Shown here in pieces: positions 18,231 to 47,497 of a stretch of DNA of 64,000 bases. The stretch spans positions 2,049,001-2,113,000 of the forward strand of contig NZ_CP039740.1 in assembly GCF_005153485.1 (NCBI RefSeq), given 5' to 3'. A program made the translations under genes and the position numbers. The stretch is from Pseudolabrys sp. FHR47 (lineage in GTDB: Bacteria > Pseudomonadota > Alphaproteobacteria > Rhizobiales > Xanthobacteraceae). Each line of letters opens with the position of its first letter. Position 1 is the stretch's first letter. The notes under the pieces are model-generated. The model saw only the letters and a list, made by a program, of their open reading frames with translations, did not search any database and had not been told where the DNA came from.

Positions 18231-18411
18231 GGCTCTACCCCCCGATGTCGCCCGACAGACAATGGTAATACCACAGGTTGTTTACCGTCAATCTGCAAAC
18301 CCGGCCGTTTCGACGCCGTTTCGGTAAAGAACCAATGTTCCATCTGTGCGTTGAAAGCCCATCGGGGAGGGGAATCCGCGTCGGGTTCCTTCCATCGATG
18401 GGACTGGACGC

Positions 18412-20514
18412 ATGCTTCTTGAACCTGGCTATAACGTCTGGCGCATCGCGCGTGCTGGCCGCGCGTCGATGCTGATCGACGCCGCGAATTATTTCGCGGC
18501 GGTGCGTAGCGCCATGATCAAGGCCGAACGCTCGATCCTGATCGCAGGTTGGGACATTCACAGCCAGACCCGGCTGGTCGGGACCGATGGCCGCGCCGAC
18601 GATGGCTATCCTGAGACTTTCGCCGAGTTTCTGGCAGCGTTGGTGGCAAAGAAGCCGCGGCTCGAGATACGGCTGCTGTTATGGGATTTCTCGGTGCTCT
18701 ATGCCACCGAGCGCGACCCGTTTCCGACCGCGACACTGCAATGGAACACGCCGCACAATATCCGCTTTTGCCTTGACGATTGCGTGCCGATCGGCTCGTC
18801 GCAGCATCAGAAACTGGTGGCCATCGACGACAAGGTCGCTTTTTCCGGCGGCCTCGATCTCACGGTGCGCCGCTGGGACACCTGCGCCCACAGACCCGAC
18901 GACCCCCTGCGTGTCGATCCAGCCGGCAAGCCCTACGGTCCTTTCCACGACGTACAGATGGTCGTCGACGGCGATGCCGCGCGCGCCTTAAGCGAATTGC
19001 TGCGCAGCCGCTGGGCTTGCGCGGCGCTGGAGGATGTCGCCGCGGTCAAGGTTGACGGCGATCCGTGGCCGGACGGCGTGAGGCCCGACTTCACCGAAAC
19101 GGACGTCGGCATTGCCCGCACCGAGCCGCGTTTCGATGGCCGGCCGGAAGCCCGCGAGGTCGAGAAGCTGTTCTTCGACATGATCGATGTCGCTGAGCGT
19201 TCGATCTATATCGAAAACCAGTTCCTTACGACCTTACCGTTCGCTCAGTGCCTCGCGGACCGCTTGCGCGCGAAGCCTGAGCTCGAAGCGCTGATCGTCT
19301 CGCCGCAAACCCATGTGTCGTGGCTCGAAGCGCAGAGTATGCGCGCCGGCCGCGCCCGTTTTGCCGAGGTGTTGAGCGAGTTCCCCGAGGAACGCGTGGC
19401 GCTGCTTTACCCCCGTGTCGAGACCAAGGGCGCCGCAGCCAATATCATGGTGCATTCCAAGGTGATGGCGGTCGATGACCGCATCATCCGCATCGGCTCT
19501 GCCAATCTCAATAACCGCTCGATGGGCACCGACACCGAATGCGATCTTGTCGTCGTCGCGCAGACGGAAGGGCAGCGTGAGACCGTGGCCCGCCTGCGCA
19601 ATACGCTGATCGGCGATCACTGCGGTGCCACGGCCGAAGAGGTGGCGCACGCCATCGCGCAAAACGGCGGCTCTCTGGTCAAGACGGGCCGGGCGCTGGC
19701 CCGCAACGGCCATAGCCTGCAGCCGATCGTCGACGATCCCAAGGTCTCGGAGGCATTCGGGCTCATCCAGGGCGTGGCCGATCCGGAAAAGCCGATCGGC
19801 GCCGAGGAATTCATCAGCAACATGTTCGGAGGATACGTGCCCGCCCGCCATTATTCGACCGTGCTCAAGGTGGTTGCCGCGGGTCTCGTGATCGTGGGGC
19901 TCGCCATGGCGTGGCAGTTCGTGCCGCTCGCCGATCCCAAGTCGGTCAAGGAAGCGTTCAGCGACATCGCCGGCAGCCATTGGGCGCCTTTCGTCGTCAT
20001 CGGCAGCTTCGTCATTGCCGGATCGCTGATGTTCCCGGTGACGGTGCTGATCGCGGCGACGGCAGCGGCTTTCGGTCCGTGGACCGGCTTCACCTATGCC
20101 TTTATCGGCGCACTGGCGAGCGCGCTGACGACCTATGCCATTGGCGCAGCCATCGGCAAACGCACGGTGCAGGATTTGCTCGGGCCGCGGCTCAACCGCA
20201 TCCGCCAGAAGATCGCCGCGCGCGGGGTGGTGTCCATTGCGGCTATCCGTCTGGTTCCGGTCGCGCCCTTCACGGTGGTCAATCTCGCCGCCGGCGCCAG
20301 CGCCATTCCGGTGTTCGATTACATGGCGGGTACCGTCATCGGCATGCTGCCCGGCATGATCATGATCTCGGCGGTGGGCAACCAGTTCGCCCGCATCCTG
20401 ACGTCGCCGACGCCGTTCGATATCGCGGCGCTCGTGGTGGCAGTGGGCGCCTGGGTGGCGCTGTCGATCGGCGTACAGGCGGCTGTGTCGCGCTACTGGA
20501 GCGCCGGCCGGTGA
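18412..20514 (+). CDS. Phospholipase D-like / VTT (DedA-type) fusion protein
   Basis: The protein has 700 residues. An N-terminal phospholipase D domain carries two HKD motifs: His132-Lys134-Asp139 in HQKLVAIDD and His348-Lys350-Asp355 in VHSKVMAVDD, with SANLNNRSMG after the second. From about residue 480 a membrane part carries the VTT/SNARE-associated domain (FGPWTGFTYAFIGALAS; RLVPVAPFTVVNLAAGAS). The pairing suggests a phosphatidyl-transfer or hydrolysis activity, such as cardiolipin turnover, held at the inner membrane by a lipid-handling VTT domain. The stop overlaps the start of the next gene. Confidence 0.88.
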   Translation: MLLEPGYNVWRIARAGRASMLIDAANYFAAVRSAMIKAERSILIAGWDIHSQTRLVGTDGRADDGYPETFAEFLAALVAKKPRLEIRLLLWDFSVLYATERDPFPTATLQWNTPHNIRFCLDDCVPIGSSQHQKLVAIDDKVAFSGGLDLTVRRWDTCAHRPDDPLRVDPAGKPYGPFHDVQMVVDGDAARALSELLRSRWACAALEDVAAVKVDGDPWPDGVRPDFTETDVGIARTEPRFDGRPEAREVEKLFFDMIDVAERSIYIENQFLTTLPFAQCLADRLRAKPELEALIVSPQTHVSWLEAQSMRAGRARFAEVLSEFPEERVALLYPRVETKGAAANIMVHSKVMAVDDRIIRIGSANLNNRSMGTDTECDLVVVAQTEGQRETVARLRNTLIGDHCGATAEEVAHAIAQNGGSLVKTGRALARNGHSLQPIVDDPKVSEAFGLIQGVADPEKPIGAEEFISNMFGGYVPARHYSTVLKVVAAGLVIVGLAMAWQFVPLADPKSVKEAFSDIAGSHWAPFVVIGSFVIAGSLMFPVTVLIAATAAAFGPWTGFTYAFIGALASALTTYAIGAAIGKRTVQDLLGPRLNRIRQKIAARGVVSIAAIRLVPVAPFTVVNLAAGASAIPVFDYMAGTVIGMLPGMIMISAVGNQFARILTSPTPFDIAALVVAVGAWVALSIGVQAAVSRYWSAGR

Positions 20515-21294: not shown

Positions 21295-21477
21295 TTAGTT
21301 GTCGAGCGCTTCCTTCATCTTGTCCTTGGCGCCGCCGACGGCATTCTGGACCTTGCCCTTGACCTGATCGGCCTTGCCTTCGGTTTCGAGCTTGGCGTCG
21401 CCGGTTACCTTGCCGGCGGCTTCCTTCACCTTACCCTTAGCCTGGTCGAACGAGCCTTCAATACGATCCTTGTTCAT
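21295..21477 (-). CDS. CsbD-family stress protein
   Basis: The 60-residue protein is highly charged and almost wholly helical: MNKDRIEGSFDQAKGKVKEA, then GKVTGDAKLETEGKADQVKG, the CsbD signature. CsbD-like proteins are general-stress markers of unknown mechanism. GAGGAG lies 6 bases before ATG 21477. An exact EcfG-type promoter lies at 21533-21558, giving an untranslated leader of roughly 50 bases. The frame is open further upstream but without similarity. Confidence 0.92.
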   Translation of the reverse strand: MNKDRIEGSFDQAKGKVKEAAGKVTGDAKLETEGKADQVKGKVQNAVGGAKDKMKEALDN

Positions 21478-21532: not shown

Positions 21533-21558
21533 AACGCGCGAGCGCGGCGCCATGTTCC
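21533..21558 (-). promoter_or_regulatory. EcfG-type promoter for the CsbD gene
   Basis: On the minus strand this reads GGAAC-N17-CGTT, the consensus for sigma-EcfG (general stress response) promoters of alphaproteobacteria. Transcription would begin near 21526. Confidence 0.75.
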
Positions 21559-21673
21559 GCCGATTGATGGTCGCAGGTTGCGGTGGGAACCACGCACAAG
21601 CAAAGGCCCGCGACGCGGTGCATCGCGGGCCTCGCATTCCACGGCCGGGTGAGTGGCCGATCCTGTTGGCTGG

Positions 21674-22099
21674 TTACTTGCCGGTGCCGCCGGCGTTATC
21701 GAGCGGCTTGGCCGACGGCGACGACGGCTTCACGGCCGGTTGCTCCGCCGAAGTGCCCGTGGTGGCGCGCGGCGCCGTGCCGGACGGCATATCGGCCGTG
21801 CTCTTGGGCTGCATGCCGCTCTTGCCAGCGTTGCCTTCCTGGGTCGGGGCGGCGTTGGGATTGGCCGGATTGGTCGTCTCAGCCTGCTGGCCCTGCTTGC
21901 CCTTCATCGAGCCGGACGCGCCTGGCATGTCCTTGGTCGCCTTCGGCTGCATGCCGCTCTTGCCGGTGTTGCCTTCCTGGGTCGGCGCGGCGTTGATGCT
22001 GGACGGATTGGTGGACTTGCCGTCGTTGGTCTGGGCACCGGCAACCGATAGGCCCGCGATCAGCGCGGCAACAGCCGTCATCGTGGTGAGCGTCTTCAT
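21674..22099 (-). CDS. Secreted low-complexity protein with a tandem repeat, stress-linked
   Basis: The protein has 141 residues: a signal peptide (to about AGA, residue 22), then two copies of a 30-residue unit with the core NAAPTQEG followed by N(T/A)GKSGMQPK, then a Ser/Pro/Ala tail. No catalytic motif is visible; the mature part should be disordered and periplasmic. I know no family. The start is ATG 22099, because AGGAGG sits 6 bases before it; ATG 22105 directly abuts that ribosome site. An EcfG-type promoter lies at 22156-22181. Confidence 0.7.
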   Translation of the reverse strand: MKTLTTMTAVAALIAGLSVAGAQTNDGKSTNPSSINAAPTQEGNTGKSGMQPKATKDMPGASGSMKGKQGQQAETTNPANPNAAPTQEGNAGKSGMQPKSTADMPSGTAPRATTGTSAEQPAVKPSSPSAKPLDNAGGTGK

Positions 22100-22155
22100 C
22101 GTCATCCTCCTTGCTATTTGAATTTGTTGCGGTTCGCTTCCGAACACGCGGGGAC

Positions 22156-22181
22156 AACGAGCGGTGCGAGTTTCATGTTCC
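22156..22181 (-). promoter_or_regulatory. EcfG-type promoter for the tandem-repeat protein
   Basis: The minus strand reads GGAAC-N17-CGTT, about 57 bases before the start codon at 22099. Exact match to the consensus. Confidence 0.72.
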
Positions 22182-22268
22182 CGGAACCCGCGCGATTTTC
22201 GCGTGTAGACGAAGAGTCGCGGCGCGGAATGTCGGGTTCCGCGCCGCTGTTGTTTGCACTGCCGAAGA

Positions 22269-22931
22269 TCAGGCTTCGAGCACGGCAACGATCTCGCGCG
22301 TTCCCGGATCGATGACGACAATAGTCGAGCCGACGATGATGTAGTCGAAGCCGCGCCATTGCGGATAGATCGTCACCACCTCGGCCGGCAGCGGGTAATA
22401 GCGCACATGCTCCGGCACCCGCGTGCCGACGCTGATCGAGATGTTGAGATTGACCGGTTCCACCTTCTGCCGCTTGATCACCGACGTGATCTTGGTGCGC
22501 TGCTCGGTGGTCAGGTTGGCGCGCGCGCCGGCCGAGCCCTGGCCGGTCGTCGAGGATTGCGTATCGCGCGCCGTCGCACCGGACTTGGTCTCAGCACCGG
22601 ACTTGCCGGCATTCATACCGGCCTTGTCATCCTTGACCCCGGATTCCGGCGCCGCGCCGCTGCGCTGCGGCGGCTGGGCTTTCATGTCCTTGATGTTGGT
22701 GTTTTCGCCGCTGCCGGGGCTGAGTCGCTGAGGCGAACCTTGACCGGTGGTTTCGGGCATGCCGCGCTTGCCTTCGCCGGCATTCATCGATGGCGCGACC
22801 TTGGCGGGCGGCGCGCTCTGCTGCGCCGCGGGGGCGCGTTCCGGCGAGGCCTGATTTGTCTGGGCGTAGGTGGCACCTGCGCCGATCACGAGCGCCAGCG
22901 CCGCGGTGGTCAGAAGTCGGGCTTGAGTCAT
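22269..22931 (-). CDS. DUF1236 secreted protein
   Basis: The protein has 220 residues: signal peptide to AQA/TYAQ (about 23), then a long disordered part rich in Pro, Ser, Gly and Ala (about 24-140) that contains NAGEGKRGMPETTGQG and NAGKSGAE, words like those of the neighbouring repeat protein. The C-terminal DUF1236 domain (about 145-220) has VPEHVRYYPLPAEVVTIYPQ and IVVIDPGTREIVAV. The function of DUF1236 is unknown; it is common in Rhizobiales. EcfG-type promoter at 22976-23000. Confidence 0.85.
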   Translation of the reverse strand: MTQARLLTTAALALVIGAGATYAQTNQASPERAPAAQQSAPPAKVAPSMNAGEGKRGMPETTGQGSPQRLSPGSGENTNIKDMKAQPPQRSGAAPESGVKDDKAGMNAGKSGAETKSGATARDTQSSTTGQGSAGARANLTTEQRTKITSVIKRQKVEPVNLNISISVGTRVPEHVRYYPLPAEVVTIYPQWRGFDYIIVGSTIVVIDPGTREIVAVLEA

Positions 22932-22975
22932 GCGAGTTCCTCTCTGCTGACCCCCCGAGGCATTCCAGCGCGGTC

Positions 22976-23000
22976 AACGCGGTGTCGCGCGCACCGTTCC
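22976..23000 (-). promoter_or_regulatory. EcfG-type promoter for the DUF1236 gene
   Basis: The minus strand reads GGAAC-N16-CGTT, about 45 bases before ATG 22931. Exact match to the consensus. Confidence 0.72.
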
Positions 23001-23088
23001 GCCTCCATTGCCTTGCGGTTCCGGCCGGGGCACCTTGCCGCCGTGAGACAAGACGGCCGGCGATTCCGCCGCCGGGGAGGCACTGACT

Positions 23089-24696
23089 TTGACGGTCCTG
23101 ACATCGACGATCGATCGCGCATCAGCGGAATTTGCCGGTAATTCCGGCCGCATGCGGGCGCTGATCGAGGAACTGCGCGCCCGGCGCGCCGAGGCCGCGC
23201 TCGGCGGCAACGAGAAGGCGCGGGCGCGCCATGTCGGGCGCGGCAAATTGCTGCCCCGCGACCGCGTCATGAACCTCATCGACCCCGGTTCGCCGTTTCT
23301 GGAGATCGGCGCGCTCGCCGCCTTCGGCATGTATGACGACGCCATCCACGGCGCCGGCATGATCGCCGGCATCGGCCGCATCGAGGGCCGCGAATGCATG
23401 GTGGTGTGCAACGATAGCACCATCAAGGGCGGCACTTATTATCCGATGACGGTGAAGAAGCATCTGCGCGCTCAGGAAATCGCGCGCGAGAACCGGCTGC
23501 CTTGCGTCTACCTCGTCGACAGTGGCGGCGCCAACCTGCCGCACCAGACCGAGGTGTTTCCCGATCGCGAGCATTTCGGCCGCATCTTCTACAATCAGGC
23601 GACGCTCTCGTCGTTGCGCATTCCTCAAATTGCAGTCGTGATGGGGTCCTGCACCGCGGGCGGCGCCTATGTGCCGGCGATGTCGGATGAGACCATCATC
23701 GTCAAAAATCAAGGCACCATCTTCCTCGGCGGCCCGCCGCTGGTGAAGGCGGCGACCGGCGAGGTGGTGAGCGCGGAGGATTTGGGCGGCGGCGACCTGC
23801 ATGCGCGCAAGTCCGGCGTCGCCGATCATCTGGCGCAGGACGATCATCATGCGCTGTCGCTGGCGCGGCGCATCGTCGCCAATCTCAACAGCCGCAAGTC
23901 GCCCGACATCGCGCTCGAGACGCCGCGCGATCCGCTCTTTGACGCCGCCGAACTCGACGGCCTGGTGCCGGTCGACCTCAAGAAGCAGTACGACATTCGC
24001 GAAGTCATCGCGCGGCTGGTCGATGGCTCCGAGTTCGACGAGTTCAAGCAACTTTACGGCACGACGCTCGTCTGCGGCTTCGCGCGCATCCACGGCATGC
24101 CGGTCGGCATCCTCGGCAATAACGGCATCCTGTTTTCGGAGAGCGCGCTCAAGGGTGCGCACTTCATCGAGCTGTGCTGCCAGCGCCGCATTCCGCTGCT
24201 GTTCCTGCAGAACATCGTCGGCTTCATGGTCGGCCGCGATTACGAGGCCGGCGGCATCGCCAAGGACGGCGCCAAGCTGGTCACCGCGGTCGCCTGCGCG
24301 CAGGTGCCGAAGATCACCGTCATCGTCGGCGGCTCCTACGGCGCCGGCAATTACGGTATGTGCGGCCGCGCCTATTCGCCGCGCTTCCTGTTCACCTGGC
24401 CGAATGCGCGCATCTCGGTGATGGGTGGCGAGCAGGCGGCCTCCGTGCTCGCTACCGTCAAGCGCGACAATATCGAAGCCGGCGGCGGCAAATGGAGCGA
24501 GATCGAGGAAGAGGAATTCAAGACGCCGATCCGCGAGCAATACGAGGAAGAGGGCAATCCCTATTACGCCACGGCGCGGCTGTGGGACGACGGCATCATC
24601 GTGCCGAGCGAGACCCGCCGCGTGCTGGCCTTGGCTTTCAGCGCGGCGCTCAACGCGCCGGTGCCGGAGACAAGGTTCGGGGTGTTTAGGATGTGA
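23089..24696 (+). CDS. mccB: Methylcrotonyl-CoA carboxylase, carboxyltransferase (beta) subunit
   Basis: The 535-residue carboxyl transferase has a crotonase-like double fold: [19 protein letters not shown] and [17 protein letters not shown] in the N-half, and [20 protein letters not shown] and [16 protein letters not shown] in the C-half, typical of MCC beta (LiuB) rather than propionyl-CoA carboxylase. Known role: transfer of carboxyl from biotin to 3-methylcrotonyl-CoA in leucine breakdown. The start is TTG 23089 with GGGGAGG about 9 bases before it; the next in-frame ATG would remove conserved residues. The biotin-carrying subunit is 7.8 kb downstream. Confidence 0.93.
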
Positions 24697-24711
24697 GGGG
24701 GGTGGGTGGCT

Positions 24712-25158
24712 ATGCAGGTTTTTCTGACGGTCTTATCGGCGGTACTTGTCTTTGTAATATCGCAAGCGCTTCTCAGGTTTTTTTTCGAGCCGTTACAAAA
24801 CTTTAACCGAGAGCGCGGCGACCTCTCGTTCCTTTTGCTTTATTATGGAATTCCAGGACTCGATAGGGCCAAGACAGTTCAGGACGATGATTATAATCTC
24901 GGCTTAATTGGCCCGTCACTTCTCGCCTGTATCGCGCAGATTCCATTTTACGATTATTTTGCTGCGTTGTCGTTTCTAGGTCTGCCTAATAGAGGCGATG
25001 TGCAGAACGCGATTGTGCTGACTGCAACGGTCACGGCGGATATTCGAAAGGAAACGGCGAAAGCGCGAGATAGCTCGGTAGATACTAGGTTGATTGAGAT
25101 CGCTCGGTTATTGAAGGTTCCTGAGCCCCGAGTATCTTCGGTAAGCGAACGAGCGTAG
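24712..25158 (+). CDS. Hypothetical membrane-anchored protein with atypical base composition
   Basis: The 148-residue protein has an N-terminal membrane helix (about 3-22) and a second weakly hydrophobic stretch near 60-85. No family recognised. Its codon use stands out: TTA, ATA, AGA and AGG codons and an AT-leaning third position, unlike the GC-rich neighbours, suggesting recent acquisition. ATG 24712 follows a G-rich ribosome site; GTG 24706 is also possible. It sits directly behind mccB and before an intergenic inverted repeat. Confidence 0.55.
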   Translation: MQVFLTVLSAVLVFVISQALLRFFFEPLQNFNRERGDLSFLLLYYGIPGLDRAKTVQDDDYNLGLIGPSLLACIAQIPFYDYFAALSFLGLPNRGDVQNAIVLTATVTADIRKETAKARDSSVDTRLIEIARLLKVPEPRVSSVSERA

Positions 25159-25176
25159 GGGGCAAAGGCGCGTAGC

Positions 25177-25281
25177 CCGTAGGGCGGGTTAGCGCAGCGC
25201 TATCCGCCATTCCATTTTGCGACACGGCGCGTTACGCCTTCGTCGCCGCTTTCGCGGGGACAAGCCTAACGCGCCCTACGG
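25177..25281. repeat. Intergenic inverted repeat (CCGTAGGGCG ... CGCCCTACGG)
   Basis: The arms at 25177-25192 and 25265-25281 match over about 15 of 16 bases and enclose some 70 bases with a further small stem. It occupies the gap between two small genes and is a non-coding repeat type common in proteobacterial intergenic DNA. Confidence 0.6.
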
Positions 25282-25296
25282 ACTGCGAATTGCTCC

Positions 25297-25515
25297 ATGC
25301 CCTCCCGCCCCAAAAAACCGCCCGGCCATGCCTGGGAAGTCTTCATCCGCTATCTCGACGATGGCGATGATGACAGCATGCTGGTGGAAGGCTGCTGGAC
25401 GCCGGAGGAGGCGATCGCCAAGGCGCGCGAGGCGCTGAACGCCTATGCCAAGAGCGACGACGACAAGGATCAGTTCGAGGTCATGGCGGTGGTGCGATCG
25501 GATGCGGTGATTTGA
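25297..25515 (+). CDS. Small acidic protein, unknown
   Basis: The 72-residue protein opens with SRPKKPPGHAWEVFIRYLDD and continues with an acidic, helical C-terminal half (TPEEAIAKAREALNAYAK). It is conserved-looking, with a clear codon pattern in this frame, but no family is recognised and no motif points to a function. It is flanked on both sides by intergenic inverted repeats. Confidence 0.55.
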   Translation: MPSRPKKPPGHAWEVFIRYLDDGDDDSMLVEGCWTPEEAIAKAREALNAYAKSDDDKDQFEVMAVVRSDAVI

Positions 25516-25521
25516 GGCCGT

Positions 25522-25591
25522 GTAGCCCGGATGGAGCGCAGCGAAACCCGGGACTACCGCCCCGCATTGCGCTTCGCTCCATGCGGGCTAC
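25522..25591. repeat. Intergenic inverted repeat (GTAGCCCGGATGGAGCG type)
   Basis: The arms 25522-25538 and 25575-25591 match in 16 of 17 bases. A related partial sequence is at about 34877-34935, after the DUF1489 gene. Confidence 0.6.
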
Positions 25592-25672
25592 GGGCCGTGT
25601 CCCGCAACGCGCGCGGGCATGACGAATAAACACTTTCAGTGTAAGCTTTTGTTCCCGCCAAAGGTGAGCATC

Positions 25673-26131
25673 ATGGACCATTTCAAGAAAGAACTCTTGG
25701 CGATTGTTACAGGTGTTACTTTGTGGGCGTATCCCGCCTTCGCCGCCACCCAGCTCCAGCCCGGCGAATGGCAGACGACCGAGACCGGCACCGAGAACGG
25801 CAAGCCGGTGCCGCCGGCGGTCGAGAAGGAATGCATGACGGCTGAGGAGGCGCGCGACGCCACCGGCCTGGTCAATGAAATGAAGAAGGCGATGACCGGG
25901 CAGGGCGCGCAGTGCCAGACCGCCGATATCCAGCAGAATGGCGACACGGTCACCTACACGCTGAAATGCGCGATGGAGAAGCAGTTCATCTTCAACATCT
26001 CCGGCACCTACACGCTGCAATCGCCGACGCGCTATGCGGGGCGGATGAAGTCCGAGATCACGATGATGGGACAAAAGACGACGGCCGATAAGGCGATCGA
26101 GGCCGTCCGCATCGGTGATTGCAAGAAATGA
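25673..26131 (+). CDS. DUF3617 family secreted protein
   Basis: The protein is about 152 residues with a signal peptide (cleavage after AFA, about residue 24). The mature domain begins LQPGEWQTTETG and has paired cysteines (KECMT, AQCQT, LKCAM, GDCKK), typical of DUF3617, a periplasmic beta-rich family of unknown function. ATG 25673 is chosen because a signal peptide follows directly and AAGGTGAG precedes it; ATG 25619 would put 18 polar residues in front of the signal peptide. Confidence 0.8.
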   Translation: MDHFKKELLAIVTGVTLWAYPAFAATQLQPGEWQTTETGTENGKPVPPAVEKECMTAEEARDATGLVNEMKKAMTGQGAQCQTADIQQNGDTVTYTLKCAMEKQFIFNISGTYTLQSPTRYAGRMKSEITMMGQKTTADKAIEAVRIGDCKK

Positions 26132-26170
26132 CGTGGCTCGGCGGCCGCCATTTGCGCTAGATACCGGTCC

Positions 26171-26863
26171 ATGAAACACACCTCGGCTCTCATCGTCGGT
26201 GCCGGCTCCGGCCTGTCGGCCTCGCTGGCGCGGCTGATGCTCAAGGACGGCCTGCAGGTCGCGCTCGCCGCGCGGTCGGCGGTCAAGCTCGCCGAATTTT
26301 CCGAGGCCACCGGCGCGCGGACGTTCAATTGCGATGTCGCCCGGCGCGACGAGGTCGAGGCGCTGTTCGCCGATCTCGACGCCGCCAAGCTCACGCCCGA
26401 TGTCGTGGTCTACAATCCGAGCTACCGCGTGCGCGGCGCCTTCATCGATCTCGATCCCGCCGAGGTCGAGAAGACCTTGGCCATCACCGCCTTCGGCGGC
26501 TTCCTGGTGGCGCAGCAGGCGGTCAAACGCATGTTGCCGAAAGGCGAGGGTGCCCTGTTGTTCACCGGCGCGTCGGCCTCCGTAAAAGGCTATGCGCAGT
26601 CGGCGCCCTTCGCCATGGGCAAGTTCGCCTTGCGCGGCCTGGCGCAAAGCCTCGCCCGCGAACTCGGCCCGCAAGGCATTCACGTCGCGCACTTCGTCAT
26701 CGATGGCGGCATCCGCAGCGCGCGCCGTCCGCCCGATCCTGCCAAGCCCGATGCGCTGCTCGATCCCGACGCCATTGCCGAGACCTATATGCAAACCTTG
26801 AGGCAGCCGCGTAGCGCGTGGAGCTTCGAGGTCGAACTGCGGCCATGGGTGGAGAAATTTTAG
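26171..26863 (+). CDS. SDR-family protein lacking the catalytic tyrosine
   Basis: This is a 230-residue Rossmann-fold protein with the nucleotide-binding loop VGAGSGLSASLA near residue 10 and an NPS motif in place of NNAG. At the usual YxxxK site the sequence is FAMGK: the lysine is kept and the tyrosine is Phe. RGLAQSLARELGPQGIHVAH follows. Such Tyr-less members form a known-looking subfamily of short-chain dehydrogenases; they may be non-catalytic or use another residue. Substrate unknown. Confidence 0.85.
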   Translation: MKHTSALIVGAGSGLSASLARLMLKDGLQVALAARSAVKLAEFSEATGARTFNCDVARRDEVEALFADLDAAKLTPDVVVYNPSYRVRGAFIDLDPAEVEKTLAITAFGGFLVAQQAVKRMLPKGEGALLFTGASASVKGYAQSAPFAMGKFALRGLAQSLARELGPQGIHVAHFVIDGGIRSARRPPDPAKPDALLDPDAIAETYMQTLRQPRSAWSFEVELRPWVEKF

Positions 26864-26880
26864 GGGAACGGCTTCGTCAT

Positions 26881-26972
26881 TCTCCGTTCATTCCCGCGAA
26901 AGCGGGAATCCAGTTTGCTGTGATTTGTGAGCGCCTCATCTGGGTCCCCGCTTTCGCGGGGACGAACGGAGA
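26881..26972. repeat. Two-hairpin palindrome with outer stem (REP-like unit 2)
   Basis: The hairpins ATTCCCGC/GCGGGAAT (26890-26909) and GTCCCCGC/GCGGGGAC (26944-26963) are closed by an outer 9-base stem TCTCCGTTC/GAACGGAGA. It lies between two plus-strand genes. Confidence 0.7.
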
Positions 26973-27016
26973 GAGCAGGCTTTTCATCGGGGCTATAGCT
27001 CGATAAACCTGCGCTC

Positions 27017-27754
27017 ATGCTCGACCTCTCTCATCTCAACGATCTCGCTCCCACCGGCACCTTGCGCGGCGGCGTTGTCGTCGCGCCGGCCAAGTCGATG
27101 TCGTTTGCGACACGCGCCGATGATGCCGCGGTGCAGGGCGTGCCGGTCGATCTGCTGCACGGCTTTGCCGCGGTGCTGAACGTGCCACTGGCGCTCACCG
27201 AGTTTTCGAATTCAGGCCAGCTCACCGACGCGATTGCCGAAGCCCGCTGCGATATCGGCTTCATGCCGCGCGATGCGGCGCGCGAGGCCCGCGTCGCCTT
27301 CGGCCCGTCGTTCTATTTGATGGGCAGCACCTATCTGGTGCCGGCGGGCTCGGAAATATTCACCATCGAGGCCGTCAATCGCGAGGGCATCCGTATCGTC
27401 GCCATCGCCAACACCACGACAGCGCGCGCCGCCCGGCGCACCGCGCCGCTGGCCATCGTTGAGGAAGTGGGAAGCGTCGACATCATGACCGCGATGGCGC
27501 AGCGCGGTGAGGCCGATGCCTTCGCGCTGTCGCATGACTCGTTCATCGGTCTGCTTCCGAAGATACCCGGCGCGCGCGTTTTGCCCGGGCAATTCCAGCA
27601 GACCGGCATTGGCGTTGCCGTGCCGCCGGGGAGGCCAGGTGCGCTCATCCTTGCGCGGCAGTTGATCGAGGAAGCGAAGGCGAGCGGCCTCGTGCGCCGC
27701 GCCTTCGATGCCGCCGGCTTTGTCGATGCGGCGGTCGCGCCGCTCGAGATCTAG
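27017..27754 (+). CDS. Solute-binding-like protein without signal peptide
   Basis: The 245-residue protein has the layout of a family-3 periplasmic binding domain: LRGGVVVAPAKSMSF, VDLLHGFAAVLNVPL, CDIGFMPRDAAREARVAFGP and YLVPAGSEI. It starts directly in the mature-like fold with no signal peptide or membrane anchor, and no transporter genes are adjacent. It may act in the cytoplasm as a ligand sensor or enzyme of the cyclohexadienyl dehydratase type, or the true start may have been missed. It overlaps the convergent gene by four bases. Confidence 0.7.
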   Translation: MLDLSHLNDLAPTGTLRGGVVVAPAKSMSFATRADDAAVQGVPVDLLHGFAAVLNVPLALTEFSNSGQLTDAIAEARCDIGFMPRDAAREARVAFGPSFYLMGSTYLVPAGSEIFTIEAVNREGIRIVAIANTTTARAARRTAPLAIVEEVGSVDIMTAMAQRGEADAFALSHDSFIGLLPKIPGARVLPGQFQQTGIGVAVPPGRPGALILARQLIEEAKASGLVRRAFDAAGFVDAAVAPLEI

Positions 27755-28287
27755 TCCGCGCGCACCCGGATCGGCGCTTCGGCCATGCGCCGGTACAGAT
27801 TGATGCGGCGGCGGATCGGCACCCAGTCGTAGAGATAGATCTCGATCGGCTTCCAGTTGGCGACCCAGCCGACGATGATCAGGCTTTCCTCGAGCACACG
27901 CGCCACCACGCGGTTGGGAATGGCGGCGGCGGCGATCTGGCTGGCCACGAGGCAGGCGATCAGCACGACAATGCCGATGCCGAGGAAGCGGCGGCCGAGG
28001 CGGAACAGCTCGCGCAGGTCCTGCTCGGCGTGGATCGCGCGGTCGGTGAAGTAGTGCGCGAACGCCTCCGGCACGCGCGCCGCGTCGGGCTTCTCCGCCT
28101 CGCTCTGCGGCAGATGGACGACGATCTCGAAGGCTTCGGCTGGCGGCAGCTCGCGCACCCAGCCGGTGATGAATTCCTCGACGCCGGCGTCGAGGTCCTT
28201 TTGCCGGAACGGCGAGGGGTCGAGCGAACTGAACAGATGCGCGATCGTCTGCGTCCGCAGCGCGATGGTGGTGACGGACGCGCTCAT
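27751..28287 (-). CDS. Conserved-looking membrane protein, unknown
   Basis: The 178-residue protein has a polar N-terminal half (about 1-100) ending in HAEQDLRELFRLGRRF, then one clear membrane helix (FLGIGIVVLIACLVASQIAA, about 101-120) and a weaker second (ESLIIVGWVANWKPIEIYLY). The C-terminus is basic (RRRINLYRRM). No family recognised. It may be transcribed after the quinone reductase gene 37 bases upstream on the same strand. Confidence 0.65.
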   Translation of the reverse strand: MSASVTTIALRTQTIAHLFSSLDPSPFRQKDLDAGVEEFITGWVRELPPAEAFEIVVHLPQSEAEKPDAARVPEAFAHYFTDRAIHAEQDLRELFRLGRRFLGIGIVVLIACLVASQIAAAAIPNRVVARVLEESLIIVGWVANWKPIEIYLYDWVPIRRRINLYRRMAEAPIRVRAD

Positions 28288-28324
28288 GATCGTTTCTGTG
28301 GCCCTATCGCGGCCCCTCTGGCCG

Positions 28325-29293
28325 TCAGATCGTCACGACGACCTTGGCGGTGGCGCCTTGTTCGACAGCCTGATGCGCGGCGGCGGTGTCGTCCAGTCCG
28401 AATTTCCGCGGATCGACGCGGTTGATCAGTTTGCCCGCCGCCAGCGCGGCGCTGATGCCGCTAACGGCGCGGGCGCGCTCTGCGGCGTCGAGATCGAACA
28501 CCAGGAAGAACTGGATGCCGATCGAGTTCGACAGGCAGAACTGTGCCGGCAGCGTCAGCTCCGGCCCGGCGATGCCATAGACCACGACGCTGCCTTTGGG
28601 CCGCAACACATTGGGCAGAAGCTTGGCATTGGCAGTGATGTTCATCTCGACCACGGCATCGACGCCGCGCTTGTCGGTCAGCGCCATGACGCGCTCGCCG
28701 ACATTTTCGGTCTTGTAGTCGATGACATGATCGGCGCCGGCTTGCCTGGCGATCTTCGCCTTCTCCGCCGAGGAAACGGTGGTGATCACGGTCGCGCCGG
28801 CGAGTTTGGCGAACTGGATGGCGTAATGGCCGACCGCGCCGGCGCCGCCGGAAATCAGCAGCGTCTTGCCGGAGCGCATCGCGCGTTCGACGGCATGAAA
28901 CGCCGTCATCGCCGGAATGCCGAGGCAGGCGCCTTCGGCGAAGCTGACTTTGTCCGGCAATGTCACCGCCTGCGCCGAAGGCAGCACGATATATTCCGCC
29001 GCGGTGCCGAAGGGGCGCTTCCACTGCGCGTTCCAGATCCACACGCGCTCGCCGATGCGCTTCTTGTCGACGCCATCGCCGACCTGGTCGATGGTGCCGG
29101 CGCCGTCGCTGTGCGGAATGATGCGCGGCCAGGGCTGCTTGCGTCCGGCGCGGACTTTCACGTCGACCGGATTGACGCCGGAAGTCGCGAGCTTGACGCG
29201 GACGTCGCCCGGTCCGCATTCGGGTGTCGGCACGTCGCCGGTGCGCAGAACGTCACCCGCCGCGCCGATATCGTCGTAGTAACAAGCTCGCAT
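28325..29293 (-). CDS. Zinc-free quinone oxidoreductase (MDR superfamily)
   Basis: The 322-residue protein has the medium-chain dehydrogenase layout: GroES-like N-domain (SGVNPVDVKVRAG; HSDGAGTIDQVG) and a Rossmann domain with the NADPH loop GGAGAVGHYAIQFAKLAGA. The zinc-binding cysteines of alcohol dehydrogenases are absent, placing it with the NADPH:quinone reductases (Qor). Known activity: one- or two-electron reduction of quinones or alpha,beta-unsaturated carbonyls with NADPH. The upstream gap is shared with the divergent 77-aa stress gene. Confidence 0.9.
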   Translation of the reverse strand: MRACYYDDIGAAGDVLRTGDVPTPECGPGDVRVKLATSGVNPVDVKVRAGRKQPWPRIIPHSDGAGTIDQVGDGVDKKRIGERVWIWNAQWKRPFGTAAEYIVLPSAQAVTLPDKVSFAEGACLGIPAMTAFHAVERAMRSGKTLLISGGAGAVGHYAIQFAKLAGATVITTVSSAEKAKIARQAGADHVIDYKTENVGERVMALTDKRGVDAVVEMNITANAKLLPNVLRPKGSVVVYGIAGPELTLPAQFCLSNSIGIQFFLVFDLDAAERARAVSGISAALAAGKLINRVDPRKFGLDDTAAAHQAVEQGATAKVVVTI

Positions 29294-29332
29294 TTCGCTC
29301 CTCCGTGTTGCGCTGGAGCATGCCTGCCTCGC

Positions 29333-29358
29333 GGAACCGCGACAAGCGCGCGCGCGTT
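29333..29358 (+). promoter_or_regulatory. EcfG-type promoter for the 77-aa protein
   Basis: GGAAC-N17-CGTT, exact, with the start codon 63 bases downstream at 29421. It lies in the divergent gap and points away from the quinone reductase. Confidence 0.7.
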
Positions 29359-29420
29359 CTCACAGACGGAACATTAAAGCCGCCAGACAAGGCGGAGCCT
29401 GTTCAAGGAGGACAACATCG

Positions 29421-29654
29421 ATGACCTATCGTGTCTATAGCGGCCCCCAGGGCGCACCCGATCCGTCGCCGCTCGAGAAGCAGCGCATGCTCTACAAGGA
29501 GTTCATGTCGATGGATGAAGCCCTTTGGTGGGCGAGCCATTTGCGCAAGCAGGGCAGGGTCGCGTTGTCGATCGAAGGCGATGACGGCAGCCGGCTGGAC
29601 CGCCGCGCCATCGGCGCCGCGATCAGCACCGCGCCGTTCCTGCGTTCCGCATAA
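29421..29654 (+). CDS. Small conserved-looking protein, stress-linked
   Basis: The 77-residue cytoplasmic protein reads MTYRVYSGPQGAPDPSPLEK, then a helix (FMSMDEALWWASHLRKQGRV) and SIEGDDGSRLDRRAI. No family recognised; the pattern suits a small soluble alpha/beta protein. AAGGAGG lies 9 bases before ATG, a strong ribosome site. An exact EcfG-type promoter is at 29333-29358. A hairpin at 29740-29765 ends the unit. Confidence 0.7.
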   Translation: MTYRVYSGPQGAPDPSPLEKQRMLYKEFMSMDEALWWASHLRKQGRVALSIEGDDGSRLDRRAIGAAISTAPFLRSA

Positions 29655-29739
29655 GTTCGCGCGCGAAATTCGTTTGAGATTTTCGCTGCGCGAAATGGCG
29701 CGGTGGAATTCCTGCCCCGACACCGGCGGACAAACGCAC

Positions 29740-29765
29740 AAAGCCCTGCCGGCCGGCGGGGCTTT
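29740..29765. terminator. Hairpin terminator between convergent genes
   Basis: AAAGCCCTGCC/GGCGGGGCTTT closes on GGCC. It lies between the 77-aa gene and the minus-strand small membrane gene; the tail has only short T runs. Confidence 0.6.
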
Positions 29766-29788
29766 GCGTATCCGCATCTTCGTTTGTG

Positions 29789-30025
29789 TCAGTTGGCGCG
29801 CGTCGCGCGGTCGGCGTTGAGATTGGCGGTGACGCGGTCCCACTGATGCTTGGCGCCTTCGCGCAGGTCGCGCCATTTCACGCTGACGACGTCCCAGTTC
29901 ACCATCGGCCGTTCGGTGGTGATGGTGACATCGTTACTGGCGATGCCGGCATGGTTCCGGTCGTAGATATAGGCGCCCGCGATGGTCAGCGCGGCGCCAA
30001 GAATGATGCCAAACAGAAGTCGCAT
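29789..30025 (-). CDS. Small membrane-anchored protein, stress-linked
   Basis: The 78-residue protein has an N-terminal membrane helix (LLFGIILGAALTIAGAYIY, 3-21) and a short polar part (MVNWDVVSVKWRDLREGAKH). It resembles small Rhizobiales envelope proteins, but no function is known to me. GGGAGAACG precedes the ATG. An exact EcfG-type promoter at 30075-30099 gives a leader of about 45 bases. Confidence 0.65.
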   Translation of the reverse strand: MRLLFGIILGAALTIAGAYIYDRNHAGIASNDVTITTERPMVNWDVVSVKWRDLREGAKHQWDRVTANLNADRATRAN

Positions 30026-30074
30026 GAGTCGTTCTCCCGTCCCGAAAGCGCCCCCTCACGCTTGCCGGGAAACG

Positions 30075-30099
30075 AACGGCTTCGGCCCGGAAAAGTTCC
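30075..30099 (-). promoter_or_regulatory. EcfG-type promoter for the 78-aa membrane protein
   Basis: The minus strand reads GGAAC-N16-CGTT, exact, 50 bases before ATG 30025. Confidence 0.72.
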
Positions 30100-46640: not shown

Positions 46641-46744
46641 CATACGCTATCGGCAAATCGCACGGGGCTTATGCGCCCGGTGAGGGGTCTGGCGGCGCAA
46701 AGCCAGTTGCGGTGATAGGAGCCGTATGAGAAACGGGAACGTCC

Positions 46745-47497
46745 ATGCCGGATTCCCGTTCCTTCGATTCATCAGCCGCCGCCTTTTTGGGCGGCGTCAA
46801 GCACGCGCTCACGTCGGTGTTTTTTCCGGTGATGGCCGGCACCTATATCGGCCTCGGCGCGCTGGCGCATGACTTCGGCCTGTCGGCCTGGTGGCTGACG
46901 CTATCGACGATCTTCGTCTGGGCGGCGCCGGCGCAGGTGATCCTGATTTCCGGCATCGGCACCGGTGCGGCGATGATCGAGGTCGCGCTGGCCGTGACGC
47001 TCAGCGCCATCCGTTTGTTCCCGATGGTGGTGGCGCTGTTGCCGCTGCTGCGCACGCGCACGACGCGCACGCGCGAACTGGTGCTGCCGGCGCATTTCAC
47101 GTCGGTCAGCATGTGGATCGAGTCGCTGCATATCCTGCCGAAGCTCGCTTCCGAGCACCGCGTCGCCTATTGCAACGGACTGTCGGTCGCTTTCATGGGC
47201 ACCGCGGCGACATTCGGTCTAGTCGGGTTCTTTCTTGCCGCCGGCCTGCCACCTTTGTACGCGGCGGCGCTGCTGTTCATCACGCCGATCTCGTTTCTCA
47301 TCTCCACGGCACGCAGCGCCGTGACCATGCTCGACCGCGTGGCGCTGGCGCTCGGCATTGTTCTCGGAACCGCACTTGCCGCGCTGCATGTCGAGTTCGA
47401 CCTGATGTGGTCCGGCGTCGGCGGCGGCACTTTGGCCTATCTCGTCAATCGCATATGGAAGTCACGCGCCAGAGCCGGCGACAAGGCGGACCCATGA
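46745..47497 (+). CDS. azlC: AzlC-family branched-chain amino acid exporter, large subunit
   Basis: The 250-residue membrane protein has the AzlC layout: FFPVMAGTYIGLGALAHDFG, a strong helix with FVWAAPAQVILISGIGTGAA, and SAIRLFPMVVALLPLL. Known role in relatives: export of branched-chain amino acids or analogues together with AzlD. The stop overlaps the azlD start (ATGA at 47494-47497). Confidence 0.9.
   Translation: MPDSRSFDSSAAAFLGGVKHALTSVFFPVMAGTYIGLGALAHDFGLSAWWLTLSTIFVWAAPAQVILISGIGTGAAMIEVALAVTLSAIRLFPMVVALLPLLRTRTTRTRELVLPAHFTSVSMWIESLHILPKLASEHRVAYCNGLSVAFMGTAATFGLVGFFLAAGLPPLYAAALLFITPISFLISTARSAVTMLDRVALALGIVLGTALAALHVEFDLMWSGVGGGTLAYLVNRIWKSRARAGDKADP

What the first reader, a model, noticed from the sequence alone, without database searches (positions are those of the whole stretch)
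21533..30099. Five exact sigma-EcfG promoters mark a local general-stress regulon
Seen: GGAAC-N16/17-CGTT at 21533-21558, 22156-22181, 22976-23000 and 30075-30099 (minus) and 29333-29358 (plus), each 45-63 bases before the start codon of CsbD, a tandem-repeat secreted protein, a DUF1236 protein, a 78-aa membrane protein and a 77-aa protein. Known: this is the EcfG/sigma-T consensus in alphaproteobacteria. Nine fixed bases with two spacers on both strands should occur about once by chance in 64 kb. Inference: the unknown small proteins are stress-response effectors of the envelope or cytoplasm.
Basis: partly seen in the sequence, partly recalled or inferred. Interest (0 to 1): 0.75.

Follow-up and report, generated by a model that had tools for sequence, protein, structure and literature searches.

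The report
Stress sigma-factor promoter cluster
Five genes close together in an alphaproteobacterium, four of them of unknown function, carry the start signal of the cell's general stress response, and related bacteria have kept that signal, so the genes probably help the cell to survive stress.

Summary
All five GGAAC-N16/17-CGTT sites are where stated, ending 44-62 bases before start codons. The genome has a phyR / nepR-ecfG locus with the same site facing phyR. As a bare pattern the motif is not enriched genome-wide (86 sites; reversed pattern 99). Position and conservation decide: 48 of 79 sites outside the window are intergenic, against 5 of the 30 control sites examined; and the exact site precedes CsbD in 20 of 20 loci, the 78-aa protein in 20 of 20, the DUF1236 protein in 19 of 20, the repeat protein in 9 of 11, the 77-aa protein in 6 of 13, with permuted-motif means of at most 0.06. 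These are EcfG promoters, clustered here but part of a regulon of about 40 sites. Added here: the genome's three DUF1236 genes all have the site, as do 11 of 29 DUF1236 loci from other genomes of the order and 33 of 45 homologues of the 78-aa protein. EcfG dependence and protein function are untested. A known kind of system with new predicted members.

The parts
21533..21558 (-). EcfG-type promoter of csbD (-35 GGAAC 21554-21558, N17, -10 CGTT 21533-21536)
   Evidence: exact site upstream of CsbD in 20 of 20 loci, window included
21295..21477 (-). csbD, 60 aa, the only CsbD gene found in the genome
   Evidence: PF05532 E 7.2e-21; one match in the genome
22156..22181 (-). EcfG-type promoter of the repeat protein (N17)
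   Evidence: exact in 9 of 11 loci, window included
21674..22099 (-). 141-aa protein with signal-like N-terminus (by eye) and low-complexity repeats
   Evidence: no Pfam match at E 0.1
22976..23000 (-). EcfG-type promoter of the DUF1236 gene (N16)
   Evidence: exact in 19 of 20 loci, window included
22269..22931 (-). 220-aa protein: signal-like N-terminus (by eye), long low-complexity stretch, C-terminal DUF1236 domain (151-219)
   Evidence: PF06823 E 1.4e-16; model of low confidence to about residue 137, confident from about 141 to 220
29333..29358 (+). EcfG-type promoter of the 77-aa protein (N17)
   Evidence: exact in 6 of 13 loci, window included; GGAAC-N17-CATT 64-65 bp upstream in 3 more
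29421..29654 (+). 77-aa small alpha/beta protein without evident membrane helix; 316 homologues found; no Pfam match
   Evidence: model pLDDT 90.6
30075..30099 (-). EcfG-type promoter of the 78-aa membrane protein (N16)
   Evidence: exact in 20 of 20 syntenic loci, window included, and 33 of 45 homologues
29789..30025 (-). 78-aa protein: one N-terminal hydrophobic helix (by eye), then the invariant residues VNWD (usually PMVNWDVV)
   Evidence: no Pfam match
18328..18352 (+). Related element before the PLD-like/VTT gene: AGAAC-N16-CGTT, one mismatch, conserved spacer (AACCAAWGTTCC); possible sixth, atypical ECF-type promoter
   Evidence: AACCAAWGTTCC occurs once in the genome

Best explanation
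The five sites are promoters for the general-stress sigma factor EcfG. Under stress, PhyR is phosphorylated and sequesters the anti-sigma factor NepR, EcfG is released, and RNA polymerase carrying EcfG starts transcription from the GGAAC / CGTT boxes, giving five separate transcripts: csbD, a secreted repeat protein, a secreted DUF1236 protein, a 77-aa soluble protein and a 78-aa single-helix membrane protein. Shown here: motif, position, conservation, presence of the regulators. Inferred: that EcfG binds and drives them, that the partner switch works in this strain as in other alphaproteobacteria, and that the products protect the envelope (repeat, DUF1236 and 78-aa proteins) or the cytoplasm (CsbD, 77-aa protein).
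For: Sites exact and well placed. phyR, nepR, ecfG adjacent, with the same site facing phyR. Exact motif retained upstream of orthologues with diverging spacers: 20/20, 20/20, 19/20, 9/11 and 6/13 loci (window counted), permuted-letter control means 0.015-0.06, maximum 3. Neighbouring genes of the same 20 loci: ADH 0/10, EEP 0/12, 258-aa ORF 0/10, SDR 0/18, 245-aa ORF 0/18, 178-aa ORF 0/6, 170-aa ORF 0/2, carboxylase 3/20. Genome-wide, 36 of 79 outside sites are intergenic with a predicted start within 110 bp, against 2 of the 30 (of 99) control sites examined. The 20 congeners used all have NepR; one congener of 99 per cent completeness (G004) lacks NepR and also the 77-aa, 78-aa and DUF1236 genes. 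In Sphingopyxis granuli csbD is a direct EcfG target whose expression falls to 0.00 in the double ecfG mutant (PMC7083833, passages and section 8); GGAAC-N16-CGTT is the EcfG1 motif in Rhizobium etli (PMC3892343, one passage).
Against: The bare motif is no commoner than its reversal in the genome (86 against 99). The 77-aa gene keeps the exact site in only 6 of 13 loci, and in 3 of those at another distance. Three congeners in which NepR was not found (G021, G023, G035, fragmented assemblies) do have the 78-aa and DUF1236 matches. No expression or transcription-start data. Another ECF sigma factor with the same boxes is not excluded by sequence.
Confidence: 0.92

Rival explanations
1. The sites are chance matches: nine fixed bases in a GC-rich genome.
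For: Genome count 86 is not above the reversed-pattern count 99; 31 of 79 outside sites lie inside predicted genes and are probably chance.
Against: Retention upstream of orthologues in most loci against control means of at most 0.06, near absence at neighbouring genes, and 33 of 45 homologues of the 78-aa gene (control mean 0.03).
Confidence: 0.03
2. The boxes are promoters of a different ECF sigma factor (or of several) that shares the GGAAC -35 box.
For: The AAC triplet of the -35 box is near-invariant among ECF sigma targets (PMC7083833 section 10); no binding data here. The PLD-like gene shows a related element that is not GGAAC in any of 14 loci.
Against: Both boxes match the EcfG consensus exactly and the same boxes face phyR; csbD is an EcfG target elsewhere.
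Confidence: 0.05
3. Beyond shared control, the five genes form one functional module: their clustering around the carboxylase locus means that they act together in one envelope process. (Compatible with the best explanation, not exclusive of it.)
For: Five sites in 8.6 kb (uniform P 0.0018); the arrangement recurs in 20 congeners.
Against: Separate promoters; the 77-aa gene was not detected in 8 and the repeat gene in 10 of 20 loci; no shared domain; conserved order may be plain inheritance.
Confidence: 0.2

Closest known systems
EcfG / sigma-T / RpoE2 general stress response of alphaproteobacteria
   Same: Same -35 and -10 boxes and spacing, same phyR-nepR-ecfG locus, csbD as target
   Different: Another organism; the DUF1236, 77-aa, 78-aa and repeat genes are not named in the EcfG passages that I read
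csbD, direct EcfG target in Sphingopyxis granuli TFA (PMC7083833)
   Same: CsbD gene behind an EcfG promoter
   Different: Other bacterium; dependence not measured here
DUF1236 gene AMC88_RS16850 of Rhizobium phaseoli, fold change about 8 under aluminium stress (PMC8909678, passages)
   Same: DUF1236 protein with predicted signal peptide, stress-induced
   Different: The passages I read do not link it to EcfG; I did not look at its promoter
CigR C-terminal domain (4ew5) and 2l1s in the PDB, as a fold resemblance of the DUF1236 domain
   Different: E-values weak (0.010 at best); profile comparison with three RcnB proteins found nothing

Membership tests
EcfG-dependent promoter | -35 GGAAC, 16-17 bp, -10 CGTT | tested here: met
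   Five exact sites
EcfG-dependent promoter | Placed shortly upstream of a gene on the same strand | tested here: met
   44-62 bases before start codons
EcfG-dependent promoter | Genome encodes PhyR, NepR and EcfG | tested here: met
   NepR PF18557 E 2.8e-16; PhyR_sigma2 E 9.5e-28 with receiver domain; sigma-70 regions 2 and 4 in the ORF that follows nepR
EcfG-dependent promoter | Boxes conserved in relatives beyond chance | tested here: met
   20/20, 20/20, 19/20, 9/11; weaker, 6/13, for the 77-aa gene
EcfG-dependent promoter | Transcription start just after the -10 box and lost without EcfG | not testable with these tools
   Needs RNA data and mutants
CsbD family | PF05532 over cut-off | tested here: met
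   74.3 bits against 40
DUF1236 family | PF06823 over cut-off | tested here: met
   60.4 bits against 32.4
RcnB/CigR-like periplasmic domain (for DUF1236) | Shared fold with the CigR C-terminal domain | tested here: inconclusive
RcnB/CigR-like periplasmic domain (for DUF1236) | Profile similarity to RcnB proteins (PF11776) | tested here: not met
   hhalign probability 3 per cent against only 3 RcnB sequences; PF11776 is not among the 13 families matched by the 44 members at E 1

The most novel reading that the evidence does not exclude
DUF1236 proteins, in many genera of the order, and the VNWDVV-motif small membrane protein, in the window's genus and some neighbouring groups, are dedicated envelope effectors of the alphaproteobacterial general stress response: secreted or membrane-anchored factors, the former with a disordered tether and a small CigR-like domain, whose loss would explain part of the stress sensitivity of ecfG mutants.
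Probability: 0.37. Interest if true: 0.5.

Novelty: new member of a known kind. Interest (0 to 1): 0.36.

Why it matters
Most target genes of the alphaproteobacterial general stress response have no known function (in Sphingopyxis only 37 per cent have a predicted one; PMC7083833 section 8). Conservation of the promoter, not only of the gene, singles out two small families as recurrent targets: DUF1236 (11 of 29 loci from other genomes of the order) and the VNWDVV membrane protein (33 of 45 homologues). That makes them good first choices for deletion tests in laboratory strains.

Full report
What was checked. All five sites exist as described. The window holds 7 matches; 100 dinucleotide shuffles give a mean of 1.21 and one shuffle reaches 7. 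The two unlisted matches are one overlapping pair on both strands at 46736-46762 with no fitting gene behind it. Distances to the start codons are 44 to 62 bases, and each start codon has a purine-rich stretch in front of it (read by eye).

Regulators. The window lies at 2049001-2113000 of a single 4.52 Mb contig. NepR is found once (E 2.8e-16). Beside it lie a PhyR ORF (266 aa from a TTG; sigma-like plus receiver domains) on the other strand and a 181-aa ECF sigma factor whose start overlaps the last base of the nepR ORF. An exact EcfG site lies between phyR and nepR, facing phyR; a relaxed search found none facing nepR. The genus is Pseudolabrys-like: congeneric genomes share contig lengths with records titled Pseudolabrys sp. 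Root1462 and Undibacter mobilis.

Genome scan. The genome has 86 exact sites against 99 for the same pattern reversed, hence no enrichment of the bare pattern. I took 3 kb around the 79 sites outside the window and predicted genes with a codon-usage model. 48 of 79 are intergenic and 36 have a predicted start within 110 bp downstream; for the first 30 of the 99 control sites the numbers are 5 and 2. The 36 distances run from 21 to 105. With the five of the window this suggests about 41 EcfG promoters with exact boxes. All 36 proteins were scanned against Pfam, with phyR, ecfG and two genes whose site lies in a neighbouring gene. 17 of the 36 have no match at E 0.01. Matches include DUF1328, two further DUF1236 proteins, PLDc_N, YkuD, an outer-membrane barrel, a PAS histidine kinase, PRC barrel, CBS, DUF3175, a polysaccharide export protein, DoxX, a sodium/hydrogen exchanger, glyoxalase, a low-affinity iron permease and DUF3096.

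Conservation. Three of the five proteins (77-aa, 78-aa, DUF1236) were searched in 60 genomes, 35 of them other members of the genus. From these 35 I took the stretch of 20 in which at least two of the three genes lay near each other on one contig, chosen without regard to the motif. In 200 bp upstream of the orthologues (window counted) the exact motif occurs for CsbD in 20 of 20, the 78-aa protein 20 of 20, DUF1236 19 of 20, the repeat protein 9 of 11 and the 77-aa protein 6 of 13; 200 permuted motifs give means of 0.015-0.06 and a maximum of 3. In seven DUF1236 loci the start was extrapolated because the N-terminus did not align. For the 77-aa gene three more loci have GGAAC-N17-CATT 64-65 bp upstream. 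The spacers differ between species. Neighbouring genes of the same loci serve as controls: 0 of 76 for seven genes, 3 of 20 for the carboxylase. Those 3 come from a symmetric doubling GGAACG...CGTTCC of the DUF1236 site, which could fire in both directions. NepR was found in all 20 of these congeners and in 30 of all 35; G004 (99 per cent complete) lacks it together with the 77-aa, 78-aa and DUF1236 genes, whereas G021, G023 and G035, fragmented assemblies, lack it but have 78-aa and DUF1236 matches.

Wider reach. Homologues of the 78-aa protein were found at 45 places in named genomes, among them records titled Pseudolabrys, Pseudorhodoplanes, Beijerinckiaceae and Methylobacteriaceae; but none of 24 genomes from other families of the order had one, so it is not order-wide. 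33 of 45 have the exact site within 200 bp upstream (300 permuted controls: mean 0.03, maximum 1). The genome has three DUF1236 genes, with an exact site 28, 32 and 44 bases upstream. Of 150 genomes of the order 45, the own one included, have DUF1236; of the 29 loci returned from other genomes 11 have an exact site (control mean 0.10, maximum 3), two of them with the same site sequence (L281, L282). So 18 of 29 do not, and DUF1236 is a frequent, not a universal, target.

The proteins. DUF1236 protein: low model confidence to about residue 137, then a confident domain at 141-220. Its best PDB matches are the CigR C-terminal domain and 2l1s, but profile tests do not confirm a relation to RcnB. 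77-aa protein: confident small alpha/beta model, pLDDT 90.6, 316 homologues found, no clear structural relative. 78-aa protein: hydrophobic N-terminal helix and invariant VNWD in 42 aligned members, 210 homologues found. Signal peptides and membrane helices are read by eye.

Known background. GGAAC-N16-CGTT as EcfG motif: PMC3892343 and PMC7083833 (passages); GGAAC-N17-20-GTT in Sphingomonas melonis: PMC6599016 (passages). csbD is a direct EcfG target in Sphingopyxis (PMC7083833, passages and sections 8 and 10). In Bradyrhizobium EcfG controls more than 100 genes (PMC8092242, passages). A DUF1236 gene is induced by aluminium in Rhizobium phaseoli (PMC8909678, passages). One search lists three papers that name DUF1236; I read passages of one, and its passages do not mention EcfG; the other two I saw only in the listing. 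Subscription papers and supplements were not covered, so a published link is not excluded.

Verdict. Real, well supported, and a new set of members of a known kind. The regulatory claim is strong; the effector claim is plausible but untested.

Noticed in passing
window 18328-18352 (+), before the PLD-like/VTT gene 18412-20514: AGAAC-N16-CGTT with a conserved spacer: AACCAAWGTTCC, then GCGTT, in 14 of 14 loci with an alignable gene (window plus 13 relatives; in 7 of the 20 stretches fetched the gene was not found); the -35 box there is GCAAC, CGAAC, AGAAC or GAAAC, not GGAAC; the 12-base core occurs once in the genome. GCAAC is one of the two most frequent EcfG -35 boxes in Sphingopyxis. Possibly an EcfG promoter overlapped by a regulator site.
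   Followed up: partly
L162:3217-3243, L163:3345-3371, L164:7573-7599, L170:3186-3212: The DUF1236 promoter is symmetric (GGAACG...CGTTCC) and reads as an exact EcfG site on both strands; in the first three it lies within 200 bp upstream of the divergent carboxylase gene.
   Followed up: partly
window 46736-46762: Overlapping exact EcfG sites on both strands at the start of a 250-aa ORF; no gene fits either direction.
   Followed up: partly
L024/L025, genome 1283125-1283209: Two diverging exact EcfG sites 34 bases apart; the minus one precedes a YkuD L,D-transpeptidase gene, the plus one has no predicted gene within 200 bp.
   Followed up: no
genome 1265067-1283209: A second group of six exact sites in 18 kb, one of them inside a predicted gene; PLDc_N, glycine-zipper (below cut-off) and YkuD genes among those behind them.
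   Followed up: no
G004 (congener, 99 per cent complete): No NepR and none of the 77-aa, 78-aa or DUF1236 genes was found, which fits joint loss of the response and its targets.
   Followed up: no
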